From: Fontimonas thermophila
Lineage (GTDB): Bacteria > Pseudomonadota > Gammaproteobacteria > Nevskiales > Nevskiaceae
DNA length: 64,000 nucleotides
Direction of reading: 5' to 3'
NCBI RefSeq assembly: GCF_900113085.1
Contig: NZ_FOOC01000004.1
Location: 205,124-269,123, forward strand
Position 1 is the stretch's first letter. Each line of letters opens with the position of its first letter. The position numbers were made by a program, and so were the translations under genes. The notes under the pieces were generated by a model, which was given only the letters and a program-made list of their open reading frames with translations, was not told the DNA's origin and searched no databases. Below, piece after piece: positions 193 through 35,455 of the stretch.

Positions 193-2009
193 TGGCGCAA
201 GCGGATACGCCTTTCGATCATCGGGCGTTCCTGTCGCAACTGAGTACGCGCCCCGGCGTCTACCGCATGTATGGGGCCGGCGGCGAGCTGCTGTACGTCG
301 GCAAGGCGCGCAATCTGCGCAAGCGGGTCTCCAGCTACTTTCTGCGCGACAGCGGCAATCCCCGCATCGAGCGCATGGTTGCGCAAATCCACCGCATCGA
401 GGTGACGCTGACGCACACCGAGGACGAAGCCTTGCTGCTGGAGGCGGCGCTGATCAAGGAGTTCAAGCCGCGTTACAACGTCTATTACCGCGACGACAAG
501 AGCTACCCTTACGTGCGCCTGACCGCGCACCGCTACCCGCGTATCGCCTACCACCGCGGCGCCCGCGTCCCGGGCGAGCAGTATTTCGGCCCGTTCCCCA
601 GTGCATCGGCGGTGCGCGAAACGCTCGCGACCCTGCAGAAGCTGTTTCGCCTGCGGCCATGCCGCGACAGTTTTTTTGCCCACCGCGACCGCCCCTGCCT
701 GCAGTATCAGATCAAACGCTGCTCCGCGCCGTGCGTCGGACGGATTTCCGAAGAGGAATACGCACAGGACGTACGCAAGGCCGTGCGTTTGCTCGAGGGC
801 AGGGCCGATGAGCTCGCGCGCGAACTCACCGACGAGATGGAGCGTGCCGCCGAGCGTCTCGACTTCGAGCTGGCGGCGCGGCTGCGCGATCAGATCGCTG
901 CGCTCAAACGCGTGCGCCAGAACGAGGCAATGACCGGCGGCGCCGAGGATCTGGACGTGATCGCCGTCGCGCCGCATGCAGCGATGAGCTGCGTAGTGGT
1001 CCTGAGCGTGCGCGGTGGGGTGAATCTGGGGCACAGCAGTCACTTCCCCAGCCATCCGCTGGATACGTCGCCGGAGGAGTTGCTCGAGAGCTTCATCAGC
1101 CAGCACTACCTCGCGCAGACGCCGCCACCGGAGATTCTGCTCAGCCATGCGCTCGGTGACGCCGGTTTACTGGAAGAGGCACTGAGCCAGCGCGCCAAGC
1201 GGCGGATCAGGCTGCGCAGGCCCCTGCGCGGACTCAAGCTGCGGTTGCTGGATATGGCCCAGCAGACGGCACACCAGGCCTTGTCCACACGGCTGCTGGA
1301 GACGGCCAGCATGGACGAGCGCCTGCTCGAGCTGCAGCGCGTGCTCGATCTGGACCGTCCGCCCCAGCGTCTGGAGTGCTTCGACATTTCCCACACCCAG
1401 GGCGAGCGTGCGGTTGCCTCCTGCGTCGTGTTCGATGCCAATGGACCGCTGAAAGCGGCATATCGCAAATTCAACATCGAGGGCATCACCCCCGGTGACG
1501 ACTATGCGGCGATCCACCAGGCGGTGAGCCGGCGTTTCGCCAAGGCCAAGGCCGGGCAGGGGCCTTTGCCCGACGTGCTGTTGATCGACGGCGGGCAGGG
1601 ACAGCTCGAGGCGGCGCTGGCGGCTGTGGACGAGCACGGAATCATGGACCTGCGGGTCGTCGCCATCGCCAAGGGACCGACGCGCAAGCCGGGTCTCGAG
1701 GCGCTGATCGTCCCGGAACAGGAACAGCCGCTGCGTCTGCCTGCGGATTCGCCCGCGCTACACCTGATCCAGCACATCCGCGACGAGGCGCATCGCTTTG
1801 CGGTTGCCGGGCATCGTGCGCGCCGCGACAAGGCGCGGCTCGGTTCGGCGCTCGACGAGATCGAGGGGCTCGGACCTGCGCGCCGGCGCGCCTTGCTGCG
1901 TGCCTTTGGCGGGTTGGCGCAAATCCGCCGCGCTAGCATCGACGAGCTGGCGCAGGTACAAGGAGTGTCGCGCACGCTCGCCGAGCGTATCTACGCGCAT
2001 TTCCACTGA
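192..2009 (+). CDS. uvrC: Excinuclease ABC subunit C
   Basis: UvrC makes the two incisions of nucleotide excision repair after UvrAB has located the lesion. The 605-residue protein has the expected order: N-terminal GIY-YIG nuclease (PGVYRMY ... LLYVGKARNLRKRV, about residues 15-95), a UVR UvrB-binding helix pair (about 205-240), the RNase H-like 5' nuclease (ECFDISHTQG, about 395 onward) and tandem helix-hairpin-helix motifs at the end (EIEGLGPARRRALL). Length matches the family. The ATG at 192 overlaps the preceding stop as TGATG and is preferred over the TTG three bases upstream. It is probably co-transcribed with the regulator before it and pgsA after it. Confidence 0.97.
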   Translation: MAQADTPFDHRAFLSQLSTRPGVYRMYGAGGELLYVGKARNLRKRVSSYFLRDSGNPRIERMVAQIHRIEVTLTHTEDEALLLEAALIKEFKPRYNVYYRDDKSYPYVRLTAHRYPRIAYHRGARVPGEQYFGPFPSASAVRETLATLQKLFRLRPCRDSFFAHRDRPCLQYQIKRCSAPCVGRISEEEYAQDVRKAVRLLEGRADELARELTDEMERAAERLDFELAARLRDQIAALKRVRQNEAMTGGAEDLDVIAVAPHAAMSCVVVLSVRGGVNLGHSSHFPSHPLDTSPEELLESFISQHYLAQTPPPEILLSHALGDAGLLEEALSQRAKRRIRLRRPLRGLKLRLLDMAQQTAHQALSTRLLETASMDERLLELQRVLDLDRPPQRLECFDISHTQGERAVASCVVFDANGPLKAAYRKFNIEGITPGDDYAAIHQAVSRRFAKAKAGQGPLPDVLLIDGGQGQLEAALAAVDEHGIMDLRVVAIAKGPTRKPGLEALIVPEQEQPLRLPADSPALHLIQHIRDEAHRFAVAGHRARRDKARLGSALDEIEGLGPARRRALLRAFGGLAQIRRASIDELAQVQGVSRTLAERIYAHFH

Positions 2010-2057
2010 GCTGGGCTATCCTGAGCGCCCAGACCTCTTCATGCCAACCCGACTCAC

Positions 2058-2618
2058 GTGCCGATCACACTGCCCCTGCTGCTGACGCTGATGCGCGTCG
2101 CGGTCATTCCGGTCGTGCTGGCCCTGTTTTTCGTGGATTGGCCTTATGCACGGCAGATTGCGACGGTGCTGTACACGCTGGCCGGTTTCACCGACTGGCT
2201 GGACGGCCATCTGGCGCGGCGCTGGAACCAGACCAGCAAATTCGGGGCTTTTCTCGATCCGGTTGCCGACAAGCTTCTGGTCACCGTCTGCCTGGTGATG
2301 CTGCTGCAAGATGCCCCGAGTGGCGTGCTGGCGGTGATCGCCGCGATCATCATCGGCCGCGAAATCACGATTTCGGCCTTGCGCGAATGGATGGCGGAGC
2401 TGGGCCAGCGCACCAGCGTCGCCGTCAGCCGCATCGGCAAATGGAAGACCGGATTTCAGATGACCGCAATCGGCATGATGATCTGGCAAATGCCACTGCT
2501 GGGCATTCCGATTTACGACATCGGTTACGCATTGCTGTTCGTGGCCGCGGCATTGACGCTCTGGAGCATGGTCGCTTACCTGCGCGCCGCCTGGCCGATT
2601 CTCCGTGACGGCGGATAG
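2058..2618 (+). CDS. pgsA: CDP-diacylglycerol--glycerol-3-phosphate 3-phosphatidyltransferase
   Basis: PgsA makes phosphatidylglycerophosphate from CDP-diacylglycerol and glycerol 3-phosphate, the committed step to phosphatidylglycerol and cardiolipin, in the inner membrane. The 186-residue protein carries the full CDP-alcohol phosphotransferase signature, TDWLDGHLARRW followed by GAFLDPVADK, with all four Asp of the DxxDGxxAR...G...D...D pattern. Hydrophobic segments flank it. The GTG at 2058 gives the usual PITLPLLLTLMRV N-terminus. It lies 48 bases after uvrC, the conserved uvrC-pgsA pairing. The tRNA genes that follow pgsA in some enterics are not present. Confidence 0.95.
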   Translation: MPITLPLLLTLMRVAVIPVVLALFFVDWPYARQIATVLYTLAGFTDWLDGHLARRWNQTSKFGAFLDPVADKLLVTVCLVMLLQDAPSGVLAVIAAIIIGREITISALREWMAELGQRTSVAVSRIGKWKTGFQMTAIGMMIWQMPLLGIPIYDIGYALLFVAAALTLWSMVAYLRAAWPILRDGG

Positions 2619-2691
2619 CGGTCTGCCGACACCACACGCCGCCGGCATGGATTTGTCCGATGGGTATCTCGCCGCAGGATCCGCCGGATCT

Positions 2692-3225
2692 TCAGCCGGA
2701 TCGCAGCAGCACGTAGAGCGCGCCGCTGCCGCCATCCACCGGCCGCGCGCTGCAGAAGGCGAGCACGTCGCGACGCTGGCGCAGCCAGCCGTCGAGCAGC
2801 CGTTTGAGCACGGGGCCGCTGTTGGGCGAGCCGTGGCCCTTGCCGTGAATGATCCGTACGCAGCGGATGTCGCGCTGCCGGCATTCGGCGAGAAACCGCA
2901 CGATCGCGTGGCGCGCCTGGTCGCGGTTGTGGCCGTGCAGGTCGAGGACGCGTTCGATGTGGTAGTGACCCCGGCGCAGACGTCGCAGCACCGCCTCCTG
3001 CACGCCGGGGGCGCGGTAGTGCAGCGTCTCTCCGTGTTCGAGCAGACCCGGATCGGGATCGAGCAGCATCTCGCGCAGGACTTCGAGATCGTCGGCTTCC
3101 CGCTGATGGGCACGCGGTTCGGGTCTGCGGCCTGGGTCTGCCACCCGCGGCGAGGGTGGGCGCGGGCGCACGTCGCGCATCGCCAGGCGGAACAGCCGGG
3201 CGTCTTCGTCGTCGATGGCGGTCAT
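2692..3225 (-). CDS. Smr domain protein (SmrA-like endonuclease)
   Basis: A 177-residue soluble protein with a C-terminal Smr domain (about residues 90-177). The diagnostic LDLHGHNRDQAR and HGKGHGSPNSGPVLKRLL motifs are intact, and the N-terminal half is charged and probably flexible. Stand-alone Smr proteins of proteobacteria are nicking endonucleases or RNA-processing enzymes; the exact substrate cannot be read here. The gene is convergent with pgsA, 73 bases away, and divergent from surE with about 100 bases between the starts, so it is likely transcribed alone. Confidence 0.85.
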   Translation of the reverse strand: MTAIDDEDARLFRLAMRDVRPRPPSPRVADPGRRPEPRAHQREADDLEVLREMLLDPDPGLLEHGETLHYRAPGVQEAVLRRLRRGHYHIERVLDLHGHNRDQARHAIVRFLAECRQRDIRCVRIIHGKGHGSPNSGPVLKRLLDGWLRQRRDVLAFCSARPVDGGSGALYVLLRSG

Positions 3226-3322
3226 GGCAGGTTGGATGGGCGCAACCGCCGGCGGGTTCCGGCAGCGTCTGTGCGCATGATAGGGGACGGCCGGTTAAAC
3301 TGATGAAAACCGCTTTGTCCGC

Positions 3323-4069
3323 ATGAAAATCCTGCTCTCGAACGACGATGGCTGCATGGCGCCGGGTCTGGTGTGCCTGCGCGATTACCTGCGCAGCCGC
3401 CACCAGGTGACCGTCGTTGCGCCGGACCGCAATCGCAGCGGCGCCAGCAACTCGCTGACCCTGCTCAACCCGCTGCGCGTGCAGCAGCACGCCGACGGCA
3501 CGCTGTGCGTCGATGGGACGCCGACCGATTGTGTGCACCTGGCGCTCACCGGACTGCTCGACAGCCAGCCGGACATGGTCGTCTCCGGCATCAATGCCGG
3601 CGCCAACCTTGGGGACGACACCCTCTACTCGGGGACCGTGGCCGCGGCGATGGAAGGCCGGCATCTGGGCTATTCCGCGATCGCGATCTCCAATGTCTCG
3701 ATCGCCCCCAAGCATTACGACACCGCCGCGCGTGTCGCCTTGCGGCTGATCGAACGTCTGGAGGCGGCCCCGTTGCCCGGCGACACCATCCTCAACGTCA
3801 ATGTGCCGGACGTGCCGTGGGAGCAGCTCGCCGGTTTCGAGGTGACGCGTCTGGGCAACCGCCACCGTTCCGATCAGGTGTTCAAGTCGCAGGATCCGCG
3901 GGGACGCACGATCTACTGGATCGGGGCTGCCGGCGCCGAGGCGGATTGCGGTCCGGGCACCGACTTTCACGCCATTGCCCACAACCGGGTCGCGATCACG
4001 CCCTTGCTCGTCGATCTGACGCGCTACAGCGCGCTCGAGCAACTGGGCAGGTGGGCCGAGGCGTTATGA
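3323..4069 (+). CDS. surE: 5'/3'-nucleotidase SurE
   Basis: SurE is a metal-dependent nucleoside monophosphate phosphatase, often with exopolyphosphatase activity, linked to stationary-phase survival. The 248-residue protein has the metal-binding NDDG motif at residues 7-10, the NRSGASNSL segment near residue 37 and [11 protein letters not shown] near residue 90, all family signatures. The stop overlaps the pcm start as ATGA, so the two are translationally coupled. surE-pcm is a widely conserved pair of stress and repair functions. Confidence 0.96.
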
Positions 4070-32899: not shown

Positions 32900-34666
32900 A
32901 TGTCCGCCTACCGCCATATCAAGATTCCCTCGACCGGCGAGAAGATCACCATCCGCAACGGCAAGCTGCATGTGCCCGACAACCCGATCATCGGCTACGT
33001 GGAGGGCGATGGCATCGGGCCAGACATCACCAAGGCCTGCCTGCGCGTCTGGGATGCGGCCGTTGCCAAGGCCTACGGCGGCAGACGCAAGATTCACTGG
33101 TGCGAAACCTTCCTCGGCGAGAAAGCGGCGAGTCTCTACGACGGCAACTACTGCCCGGATGAGACGCTGGAGGTGCTCAAGGATCTGGTGGTCTCGATCA
33201 AGGGACCACTGACGACGCCGGTCGGCGGCGGTTTTCGCAGCCTCAACGTGGCGCTGCGCCAGGAGCTCGACCTTTATGCCTGTGTGCGCCCCGTGCGCCA
33301 TTACGCCGGTGTCCCCAGCCCGCTCAAGCGGCCGGACAAGGTCGATGTGGTGATCTTCCGCGAGAATACAGAAGACGTGTACGCGGGCATCGAATACAAG
33401 GCCGGGACGCCGGAGAACGAAAAACTCGCCCGCTTCCTGCGCGAGGAAATGGGGGCCAAGTTCTTCGAAGGCGCTGGACTGGGAGTGAAACCGATTTCCG
33501 AATTCGGCTCCAAGCGCCTCATCCGCAAGGCGATCCAGTACGCGATCGACAACGGGCGTGAATCGGTGACCCTGGTGCACAAAGGCAACATCATGAAGTT
33601 CACGGAAGGCGCTTTCCGGAACTGGGGCTACGAGGTCGCGCGCGAGGAATTCGGCAGCGTCACCATCACCGAGGAGCAGTTATACGCCGAATACAAGGGC
33701 AAGCAACCCGAGGGCAAGATCGTCATCAAGGACCGCATCGCCGACATCATGTTCCAGATGATGCTGCTGCGTCCCGAGGAGTTCGACGTGATCGCGACGA
33801 TGAACCTCAATGGCGATTACCTCTCCGATGCGATCGCTGCGGAAGTCGGCGGGGTGGGCATCGCGCCCGGCGCGAACATCGCCGATCACATCGCCGTGTT
33901 CGAGGCCACACACGGCACTGCGCCCAAGTACGCCAACTTGAACAAGGTCAATCCGGGTTCTTTGCTGTTCTCCGGCGTGATGATGCTCGAGTACATGGGC
34001 TGGAAGGAGGCTGCGGACCTGATCACGCTGGTCTATCCGGAAGTCGTATCGGACGGCATCGTGACCTACGATTTCGCGCGCCAGATCGAAGGCGCGACCG
34101 AAGTCGGTACATCGCAGTTCGCCGACGCGCTGATCGAGCGCATCGAGGGCGGCGTCGATCTCGAAGCCAAGCGCAAGGCGCAGCAGGCGCGGCTCGCCAA
34201 GGAGCGCAAGCAGCGCGAGATCCGTCGCCTGCTGCAACCGTTCGAGGAAATGATCGAGACCGGACGTGTGCCGACGACCGTCGCCGATCTGATGACGCGA
34301 TCGCTGATCACGGTGAGCGATAACGAGACCGTCGAAAGCGCGATGCATGTGATGGCCGACAATGACATCAGCTCGGTCGTCGTCGAGCCCAATGAGCAGG
34401 GCGAGTGGGGCATCGTCACGCGTCGCGACATCGTCGCCAAGATCGTGCATCCCGGCAAAAATCCGGCGACGACACGGGTCAAGGAGATTTGCACGCGGCC
34501 GGTGGTGTCGGTCCCGGCGGAGATGAGCATCCGCGAGGCGGCCGCCAAGATCTCCAGCTCCAACTTCAGCCGTTTCACGGTCGAGCAGGGTGGCAAGATC
34601 ATCGGCATCGTCACCGAGACCGATATCTTCAACGCGGTGGAGAAGTTCGCCTGGGCCCAGGAGTGA
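32900..34666 (+). CDS. icd: NADP-dependent isocitrate dehydrogenase fused to a C-terminal CBS-domain pair
   Basis: Residues 1 to about 418 are a full isocitrate dehydrogenase, making 2-oxoglutarate and [14 protein letters not shown], the substrate loop [13 protein letters not shown] (Ser114 matches the Ser113 that AceK phosphorylates in E. coli) and [10 protein letters not shown] are intact. The Lys-Tyr of APKYA and the Tyr/Arg of TYDFAR point to NADP. After a charged helical linker ([17 protein letters not shown], about 430-445), residues 463-588 form two CBS motifs, [16 protein letters not shown] to TRRDIVAK and [14 protein letters not shown] to [12 protein letters not shown]. Typical Icd ends near 416 residues. 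CBS pairs usually bind adenine nucleotides, so ligand control is likely. One continuous frame with no slip site seen. Confidence 0.93.
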
Positions 34667-34681
34667 CCACAGAGGCGGGAC

Positions 34682-35455
34682 ATGAGTCGTGACCCGCGCA
34701 TCGGGCTTCTCGTTGTCGGGGACGAAATCCTCTCCGGCAAGCGCCAGGATCGGCATTTCGCGAAAGTCATCGAGCTGCTCCGTGCCCGCGGCTTGGAGCT
34801 TGCCTGGGCGCGCTTCGTCGGCGATGACGAACCCGAGATCGCGGATGCCTTGGTGCAAGCCCGCGCTCGAGGCGACATCGTGTTGTCCTGCGGCGGTATT
34901 GGCGCGACGCCGGATGACCGGACGCGCCAGGCCGCCGCACGCGCCTTCGGTGTGCCACTTGCGCGGCACACCGAGGCCGAGGCCCTGATCGTTGCGCAGT
35001 ACGGAGCGGCGGCGCATCCGCATCGTGTGCTGATGGCGGATTTTCCGCGCGGCGCAGGGTTGATTCCCAATCCGGTCAATCGCGTCGCCGGATTTTTCAT
35101 CGAGGATTGCAATTTCGTGCCCGGCTTTCCGGAAATGGCCTGGCCGATGCTCGAGTGGGTGCTCGATACGCGCTATGCACGGCTGCACCGTACGCAGCCG
35201 CCGGCAGAGTACCGGCTGCGTGTGCTCGGCACCTGCGGCGAAGCCGATCTGCTGCCGCTGATGGAAGCGACGCTGGCCTGCCATCCGCAGGTCAAGCTGT
35301 CCAGCCTGCCATCCCGCGGCGATGGCATACGGCCACGCCACATCGAGTTTGGATTCAAGGGTGAGGCATCCGCTGCCGCCGCGGCCTACCGCCATTTTCG
35401 TGCGCAACTGGGTGGATTCCCGCAGGTGCAAGTCGAGGAGTTGGCTGCGCCGTGA
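34682..35455 (+). CDS. CinA-like molybdopterin-binding domain protein
   Basis: A 257-residue protein with the MoCF/CinA N-terminal fold: GLLVVGDEILSGKRQDRH at the start, DIVLSCGGIGATPDDRTRQAAA in the middle and the FVPGFPEMAWPML segment. It lacks the C-terminal NMN-deamidase domain of full CinA and is closer to the short YfaY-type proteins, some of which hydrolyse ADP-ribose or related nucleotides. The role here is unknown. It starts 16 bases after icd and is probably in the same transcript, which is interesting beside a CBS-regulated enzyme. Confidence 0.8.
   Translation: MSRDPRIGLLVVGDEILSGKRQDRHFAKVIELLRARGLELAWARFVGDDEPEIADALVQARARGDIVLSCGGIGATPDDRTRQAAARAFGVPLARHTEAEALIVAQYGAAAHPHRVLMADFPRGAGLIPNPVNRVAGFFIEDCNFVPGFPEMAWPMLEWVLDTRYARLHRTQPPAEYRLRVLGTCGEADLLPLMEATLACHPQVKLSSLPSRGDGIRPRHIEFGFKGEASAAAAAYRHFRAQLGGFPQVQVEELAAP

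What the first reader, a model, noticed from the sequence alone, without database searches (positions are those of the whole stretch)
32900..34666. Isocitrate dehydrogenase fused to a CBS-domain pair
The sequence shows one uninterrupted 588-residue frame: a complete NADP-type Icd followed by a charged helix and two CBS motifs. Established knowledge: CBS pairs usually bind AMP, ATP, SAM or similar ligands and control the attached enzyme (IMPDH, CBS, transporters). Standard Icd is regulated by AceK phosphorylation at a serine that is also kept here (Ser114). Inference: the TCA/glyoxylate branch point here may be under direct allosteric control by nucleotide charge, possibly on top of phosphorylation.
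Basis: partly seen in the sequence, partly recalled or inferred. Interest (0 to 1): 0.78.

Follow-up and report, generated by a model that had tools for sequence, protein, structure and literature searches.

The report
Isocitrate dehydrogenase with built-in nucleotide sensor
A central-metabolism enzyme (isocitrate dehydrogenase) carries, in one conserved protein, a domain pair that in other proteins often senses energy nucleotides, and it does so in bacteria that mostly have the glyoxylate shortcut but lack the kinase that controls this branch point in E. coli.

Summary
One 588-residue frame (32900-34666, +) encodes a complete NADP-type isocitrate dehydrogenase (Icd), a conserved charged helical linker and two CBS domains. 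It is a widespread family: 33 of 61 genomes (own plus 60 relatives), 17 of 274 sampled from the class, and 60 of 62 named loci in one frame (Nevskiales, Salinisphaerales, Ectothiorhodospiraceae and others). In 80 distinct sequences the CBS ligand signature (T507, D510, R558, D575) never varies. The tree fits one gain and several losses.

The genome has malate synthase and isocitrate lyase but no AceK. AceK is in 0 of the same 61 genomes. Among class genomes with isocitrate lyase it is in 1 of 12 fused and 31 of 60 others; over all class genomes the difference is not significant, and a relatedness-aware test had no power. Two CBS-less relatives carry icd-aceK in tandem.

Stand-alone CBS proteins of the same subfamily sit beside icd in six Chloroflexota loci. 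Most likely mechanism: adenylate binding to the CBS pair tunes Icd; ligand and direction are untested. Six searches of an open full-text library showed no paper on this architecture. A different Icd fusion (zinc-ribbon DUF1451) turned up in another class.

The parts
32900..34147 (+). NADP-type isocitrate dehydrogenase domain, residues 1-416
   Evidence: Pfam PF00180 31-410; TIGR00183 648 bits; alignment to E. coli 1ai2 and P. aeruginosa 5m2e; cofactor residues K343 79/80, Y344 80/80, V350 79/80, Y390 80/80, R394 80/80 (roles of V350, Y390, R394 recalled)
34148..34273 (+). conserved charged helical linker, residues 417-458 (invariant R436, E440, P447, M451, G455, P458)
   Evidence: predicted helices 421-445 and 447-454; residue counts over 80 distinct sequences; first part left behind in an Icd without the CBS pair (L138)
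34274..34444 (+). CBS domain 1, about residues 459-515, with signature W503-x-x-x-T507-x-x-D510
   Evidence: Pfam CBS, two stretches; boundaries from the NCBIfam CbpB match 459-515; T507 and D510 80/80
34478..34642 (+). CBS domain 2, residues 527-581, with R558 and G569-x-x-[ST]572-x-x-D575
   Evidence: Pfam stretch 527-581; R558, G569, D575 80/80 and S/T572 80/80
34682..35455 (+). next gene downstream, 15 bases after the stop: CinA-like, NMN-deamidase-related / molybdopterin-binding protein; neighbour, not part of the enzyme
   Evidence: ORF; NCBIfam PRK01215 and cinA_nterm matches below their cut-offs

Best explanation
The gene encodes an NADP-dependent isocitrate dehydrogenase with a C-terminal Bateman module (CBS pair) that acts as a built-in allosteric sensor. 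Two Icd chains dimerise; their two CBS pairs, held by the helical arms, pair with each other and bind an adenine nucleotide (AMP/ADP/ATP or a related one) at sites made by T507/D510 and R558/S-T572/D575. Ligand binding changes the arms and so the catalytic clefts. My guess for direction is that AMP/ADP favours the active form and ATP the slow form, so that in energy-rich cells isocitrate is left for isocitrate lyase. In these lineages this would do part of the job that AceK phosphorylation does in E. coli. Shown: the fusion, its conservation, intact catalytic, cofactor and CBS-site residues, shunt genes present, AceK not found. Inferred: dimer arrangement, ligand, direction, functional replacement of AceK.
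For: Single conserved frame. Purifying selection on the CBS part. Only 7 of the 125 positions 459-583 are invariant in 80 distinct sequences, and five of them (T507, D510, R558, G569, D575) lie in the ligand-site motifs, while the mean top-residue frequency there is 0.62. Solved relatives of the CBS pair by sequence or fold include CBS-CP12, MJ1225 and AcuB; AcuB entries are titled with AMP, ADP or Ap4A. CBS model with mean pLDDT 85.9. Isocitrate lyase in 12 of 17 fused against 60 of 257 other class genomes. AceK in 0 of 61 genomes, own plus relatives; among class genomes with isocitrate lyase, 1 of 12 fused against 31 of 60 others (Fisher p 0.009, not corrected for relatedness). Within the same Icd clade AceK occurs in 1 of 48 fused and 5 of 17 unfused genomes, with icd and aceK 224 and 225 bases apart in G326 and G216. 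In six Chloroflexota loci a stand-alone CBS protein of the same subfamily ends about 70-240 bases from icd.
Against: No binding or kinetic data. CBS pairs can bind SAM, Mg-ATP, c-di-AMP or nothing, and can serve only oligomerisation (recalled; some ligands in titles). Seven of 33 fused genomes and 5 of 17 fused class genomes have no confident isocitrate lyase, so control of the shunt cannot be the whole role; one of the seven, G016, is only 79% complete. One fused genome (G272) also has an AceK match. Without conditioning on isocitrate lyase the AceK difference is not significant (1 of 17 against 39 of 257, p 0.48), and the relatedness-aware pair test found only 3 usable pairs and no signal. 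The CBS part evolves faster than Icd.
Confidence: 0.6

Rival explanations
1. The CBS pair senses another ligand (NAD(P)H, SAM, Ap4A, Mg-ATP, c-di-AMP) and reports redox, one-carbon or stress state rather than adenylate charge.
For: CBS folds in the hit list are titled with MTA/SAM (MJ0100), ATP (MgtE), AMP/ADP/Ap4A (AcuB); the next gene downstream is CinA/NMN-deamidase-like, i.e. near NAD metabolism (matches below cut-off).
Against: Invariant T-x-x-D, S/T-x-x-D and the strand Arg fit a phosphorylated adenosine ligand best (residues; role of these residues recalled).
Confidence: 0.22
2. The CBS pair is a structural or oligomerisation module (dimer to tetramer or higher, or docking to another protein) without metabolite control.
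For: The linker is predicted helical and is conserved; CBS-CP12 in the hit list is titled as a hexamer; in Chloroflexota related CBS proteins lie beside icd as separate genes, which would also fit a docking partner.
Against: Five of the seven invariant positions of the CBS part lie in the ligand-site motifs.
Confidence: 0.15
3. The CBS part is a neutral passenger with no function in these organisms.
For: It appears to have been lost several times: G054/G059, G235 (linker remnant kept), the G326 group.
Against: dN/dS of the CBS part 0.14-0.22; invariant signature in 80/80; retained in several orders.
Confidence: 0.03

Closest known systems
Dimeric NADP-Icd of E. coli type (subfamily I; 1ai2, 5m2e)
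   Same: Same fold, catalytic and NADP residues; 58-60% identity in the Foldseek alignments to the E. coli and P. aeruginosa entries (sequence alignment)
   Different: Those chains are 414-418 aa with no CBS pair; E. coli is controlled by AceK, not found here. The stretch that matches E. coli's AceK-recognition segment looks closer to archaeal Icd (2iv0), but CBS-less G326, which has aceK beside icd, shows the same kind of stretch
CBS-CP12 of cyanobacteria (5nmu, 5nvd)
   Same: Nearest solved CBS pair by fold search, fourth by sequence profile; also a CBS pair fused to a part that acts on central carbon metabolism (inhibits PRK; PMC9514657, passages seen)
   Different: CBS is N-terminal and fused to a small inhibitor protein, not to an enzyme
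IMP dehydrogenase with Bateman domain
   Same: Metabolic dehydrogenase with a CBS pair that binds nucleotides (recalled; TIGR01302 matches the CBS part, 32 bits, far below its cut-off)
   Different: CBS is inserted in the catalytic domain, not attached by a C-terminal helix (recalled); unrelated catalytic domain
Thermus-type IDH with C-terminal extension (subfamily IV, 2d1c, TIGR02924)
   Same: An IDH with extra C-terminal residues
   Different: Extension forms a clasp (PMC3521221, passages); P0001 scores 236 bits against the TIGR02924 cut-off of 561
Stand-alone CBS proteins beside icd in Chloroflexota (L102, L103, L106, L107, L109, L116)
   Same: 35-42% identical CBS pair with the same W-G-I-[MV]-T-M-R-D and S-D-T-D-[IL]-F motifs, next to icd
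   Different: Separate gene, convergent orientation, own N-terminal part where the frame is complete; their Icd belongs to another Icd clade

Membership tests
NADP-dependent isocitrate dehydrogenase (TIGR00183) | Score above the curated cut-off | tested here: met
   648.2 bits against 567.3
NADP-dependent isocitrate dehydrogenase (TIGR00183) | Substrate and NADP-discriminating residues (E. coli S113, N115, R119, R129, R153, K230, K344, Y345) | tested here: met
   Aligned S114, N116, R120, R130, R154, K228, K343, Y344 are invariant in the 32-row alignment; residue list from PMC3521221 Table 2; in the 80-row set K343 is R once
NADP-dependent isocitrate dehydrogenase (TIGR00183) | Catalytic activity with NADP | not testable with these tools
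   needs the purified protein
CBS-domain (Bateman) module | Two CBS domains above the Pfam cut-off | tested here: met
   PF00571, two stretches, 89.8 bits for the whole protein against 24; predicted CBS fold, Foldseek E 4.7e-13 to 5nvd
CBS-domain (Bateman) module | Nucleotide-site motif [ST]-x-x-D in both repeats (motif recalled) | tested here: met
   T507/D510 and S-T572/D575 in 80 of 80
CBS-domain (Bateman) module | Ligand binding | not testable with these tools
   needs a binding assay
AceK-controlled Icd (E. coli system) | aceK gene in the genome | tested here: not met
   PF06315 at E <= 1e-20: no match in G000 or in 60 relatives; control rings in E. coli
AceK-controlled Icd (E. coli system) | Phosphorylatable serine | tested here: met
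   S114 in 78 of 78 distinct rows with a residue there; also a substrate residue, so not diagnostic
Thermus-type subfamily IV IDH (TIGR02924) | Score above the curated cut-off | tested here: not met
   236.4 bits against 561.35

The most novel reading that the evidence does not exclude
The Icd-CBS protein is a second, kinase-free solution to the TCA/glyoxylate branch point: direct adenylate sensing inside Icd does the job of AceK, and lineages have swapped one for the other. Nearly all fused genomes lack AceK (47 of 48), while 5 of 17 CBS-less genomes of the same Icd clade carry aceK, in G326 and G216 directly after icd.
Probability: 0.35. Interest if true: 0.8.

Novelty: new variant of a known kind. 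Interest (0 to 1): 0.6.

Why it matters
Control of isocitrate dehydrogenase by AceK is a textbook case of regulation at a metabolic branch point. How AceK-less bacteria with the same branch point manage it is largely open (recalled). A conserved Icd with its own CBS sensor makes that question directly testable with one purified protein and its truncation. Standard annotation probably hides it, because the Icd models that score above their cut-off (TIGR00183, PRK07006) cover only the Icd part.

Tried and rejected
Rejected: sequencing or annotation artefact (fusion in 80 distinct sequences); Thermus-type extension; a second close Icd in the own genome (the other Iso_dh hit is distant; unrelated IDH types not searched); phosphorylation by AceK in this genome.

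Led nowhere: relatedness-aware test of CBS against AceK, only 3 independent pairs on starred branches; Rfam scan of the window at gathering threshold, no match. Literature: ten searches in all. Six aimed at this architecture; the other four were about AceK and IDH regulation (51), CBS-CP12 (62), a zinc-ribbon Icd (69) and CBS control of enzymes (72). The widest, 'isocitrate dehydrogenase' with 'CBS domain', gave 30 papers, of which I saw titles and abstract starts, plus passages of one (PMC8542936); one search held 337 papers and listed 20. No title or abstract start that I saw described an Icd-CBS fusion. PMC4720418 has the CBS term only in its reference list. Of PMC3521221 I saw passages and section 11, of PMC9514657 passages. 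Subscription journals and preprints are not in that library, so print elsewhere is not excluded.

Not done: a model of the dimer (only single chains could be folded; the full-length model has mean pLDDT 77.2 and pTM 0.64, so its interdomain arrangement was not interpreted).

Rows dropped before counts: alignment A1 holds the window protein and 31 of the other 35 fused loci then on hand (L011, L013, L022, L033 left out); A2 holds 16 of these 32. The trees hold only rows whose Icd match runs from residue 20 or before to 400 or beyond with at least 450 bits, identical ones once: 113 rows and, one row per genome with a known handle, 67 rows. One search counted 81 fused sequences; the recount found that the window protein was in twice, so all counts here use 80. 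The AceK, isocitrate-lyase and fusion labels were copied by hand from the tables; the 15 near unfused class genomes were picked by score (650 bits or more). The first dN/dS run handled two minus-strand rows wrongly; one search replaces it.

Full report
WHAT IS THERE. The + strand frame 32900-34666 starts with ATG, ends with TGA and encodes 588 residues. Residues 1-416 are a full NADP-type isocitrate dehydrogenase (Pfam Iso_dh; TIGR00183 648 bits). Residues 417-458 are predicted as two helices (421-445 and 447-454). The rest is a CBS pair. The CBS part alone was modelled with mean pLDDT 85.9, and its best fold matches in the PDB are cyanobacterial CBS-CP12. Catalytic and NADP-discriminating residues are kept (residue roles from PMC3521221, section 11). 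The window lies in a 2.73 Mb, 28-contig genome, 99.6% complete. By the C-terminal part of this protein its nearest named relatives are Sinimarinibacterium, Solimonas and Nevskia, so I place it in the Nevskiales (inference).

HOW WIDESPREAD. Of 61 genomes (own plus 60 relatives), 33 hold the whole fusion, 2 hold an unfused Icd of the same clade (G054, G059), and the other 26 have only distant hits (best E 5e-51 or weaker); unrelated IDH types were not searched. Of 274 genomes spread over the class, 17 have the linker and CBS part in such a gene (in G232 it is cut by contig ends). In the named genome collection 342 candidate stretches encode a relative of the CBS part and the best 80 were returned, so the full number there is unknown. 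Of these 80, 62 are of the Icd-CBS type: 60 show Icd and CBS in one frame, one is cut by a contig end before Icd can be seen (L099), and one has its frame broken twice (L084, Alkalilimnicola ehrlichii; not mended). The other 18 are CBS proteins without Icd from Chloroflexota (14) and Methylomirabilota (4). In 398 genomes over the phylum only G000 and G131 matched over the CBS part.

CONSERVATION. Over 80 distinct fused sequences T507, D510, R558, G569 and D575 are invariant, and position 572 is always S or T. Only 7 of the 125 positions 459-583 are invariant; the other two are M465 and P534. The mean frequency of the commonest residue is 0.84 in Icd, 0.64 in the linker and 0.62 in the CBS part, so the ligand signature stands out from a faster-changing background. 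In the linker R436, E440, P447, M451, G455 and P458 are invariant. dN/dS against three close relatives is 0.06-0.09 (Icd), 0.16-0.24 (linker) and 0.14-0.22 (CBS). That these CBS residues bind the ribose and phosphates of adenine nucleotides is recalled knowledge; the strand Arg falls on an Arg of MJ1225 in the profile alignment.

EVOLUTION. On trees of the Icd part all fused proteins fall with some unfused ones in one group (78 fused and 12 unfused rows, support 96; 39 fused and 12 unfused, support 99/95), and the fusion label needs 6 changes (at least 4 and 3 forced by starred branches). This fits one gain and several losses, though a count of changes cannot tell gain from loss and several long branches are unsure. 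Signs of loss: L138 (G235), sister of the fused G091, keeps about 23 residues of the linker after Icd and then stops, with a methyltransferase-like frame next (the name of that frame is my reading of the translation). G054/G059 sit with fused genomes of their family.

LINK TO THE GLYOXYLATE BRANCH POINT. The own genome has malate synthase and isocitrate lyase close together on C12 (213822-214553 and 215285-216550) and no AceK. AceK (PF06315) is in 0 of the 61 genomes. There a confident isocitrate lyase is in 26 of 33 fused and 14 of 28 other genomes (13 weak matches, E 6e-21 to 4e-23, were not counted as isocitrate lyase). In the class AceK is in 40 of 274 genomes and isocitrate lyase in 72 of 274. 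Isocitrate lyase is in 12 of 17 fused and 60 of 257 others (p 1e-4). Among genomes with isocitrate lyase AceK is in 1 of 12 fused and 31 of 60 others (p 0.009). Against this: without conditioning on isocitrate lyase the difference is not significant (1 of 17 and 39 of 257, p 0.48), none of these p-values accounts for relatedness, and the independent-pairs test has 3 pairs and no signal. Within the Icd clade AceK is in 1 of 48 fused and 5 of 17 unfused genomes (p 0.004, uncorrected); four of the five fall in one weakly supported group (G326, G216, G253, G208). In G326 icd ends at 1868 and a complete AceK gene starts at 2093 of L178. In G216 the two frames lie in the same order 225 bases apart (AceK match). 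I take this as a suggestive swap, not as proof.

A SECOND CLUE. The nearest relatives of the CBS part outside the fusion, in the list returned, are CBS proteins without Icd that share its motifs. In six of the 18 such loci (L102, L103, L106, L107, L109, L116, all Chloroflexota) the CBS gene and an icd gene converge with gaps of about 70-240 bases (frame coordinates). The other ten showed no icd nearby; the DNA held around several of them is short. The six belong to related lineages, so this may be one event, and a convergent pair is a weaker link than an operon.

MECHANISM. Best reading: an adenylate-sensing Bateman module on Icd (confidence 0.6). Shown: architecture, conservation, selection, gene content. 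Inferred: dimer arrangement, ligand, direction, replacement of AceK. Rivals: another ligand (0.22), pure oligomerisation or docking (0.15), passenger (0.03).

NOVELTY. Both parts are known kinds; the combination is a new variant. Six searches of an open full-text library aimed at it showed no paper on it, judged from listings and a few passages. The Icd models that reach their cut-off (TIGR00183, PRK07006) cover only the Icd part.

NOTICED. In the phylum scan 49 genomes of two families outside the class (f202, f235) have an Icd match, 44 of them in frames of 571-621 residues. I read 11 of these genes. Their tail is not CBS but a helical-looking region and a zinc ribbon; Pfam finds DUF1451 in both that were scanned. 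The C-terminus of Icd has thus taken up different extra domains at least twice.

Noticed in passing
L182-L191, L193 (11 of 12 fetched stretches; genomes of families f202 and f235, another class of the same phylum): A different Icd fusion: NADP-Icd followed by a helical-looking region and a zinc-ribbon domain (DUF1451, PF07295; Pfam run on 2 of the 11). 44 of 49 genomes of these families with an Icd match show frames of 571-621 aa; the other five show shorter frames. Function unknown; perhaps a metal or redox sensor or a docking part.
   Followed up: partly
L102, L103, L106, L107, L109, L116: CBS proteins of the same subfamily, without Icd, sit convergently beside icd in Chloroflexota (gaps about 70-240 bases).
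   Followed up: partly
L178:615-1868 and 2093-3838 (G326); L179:3374-4627 and 1403-3148, minus strand (G216): CBS-less Icd of the same clade with aceK directly downstream.
   Followed up: yes
L138:1492-2802 (G235): Icd that ends in a remnant of the linker helix; the CBS pair is gone.
   Followed up: yes
L084:2677-4426 (Alkalilimnicola ehrlichii AK92): Icd-CBS gene whose frame is broken in two places; real or an assembly error is not known.
   Followed up: no
G197:C10:98209-101067 (L163): A genome with the fusion also has a second, ordinary Icd right after its isocitrate lyase gene.
   Followed up: no
window 34682-35455 (+): CinA/NMN-deamidase-like gene 15 bases after the fusion's stop codon, possibly co-transcribed; conservation of this neighbour was not checked.
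   Followed up: no
G001, G002, G008, G009, G010 (same genus as the window): These genomes show no close Icd, only distant hits; perhaps another type of isocitrate dehydrogenase takes its place within the genus. Other IDH types were not searched.
   Followed up: no
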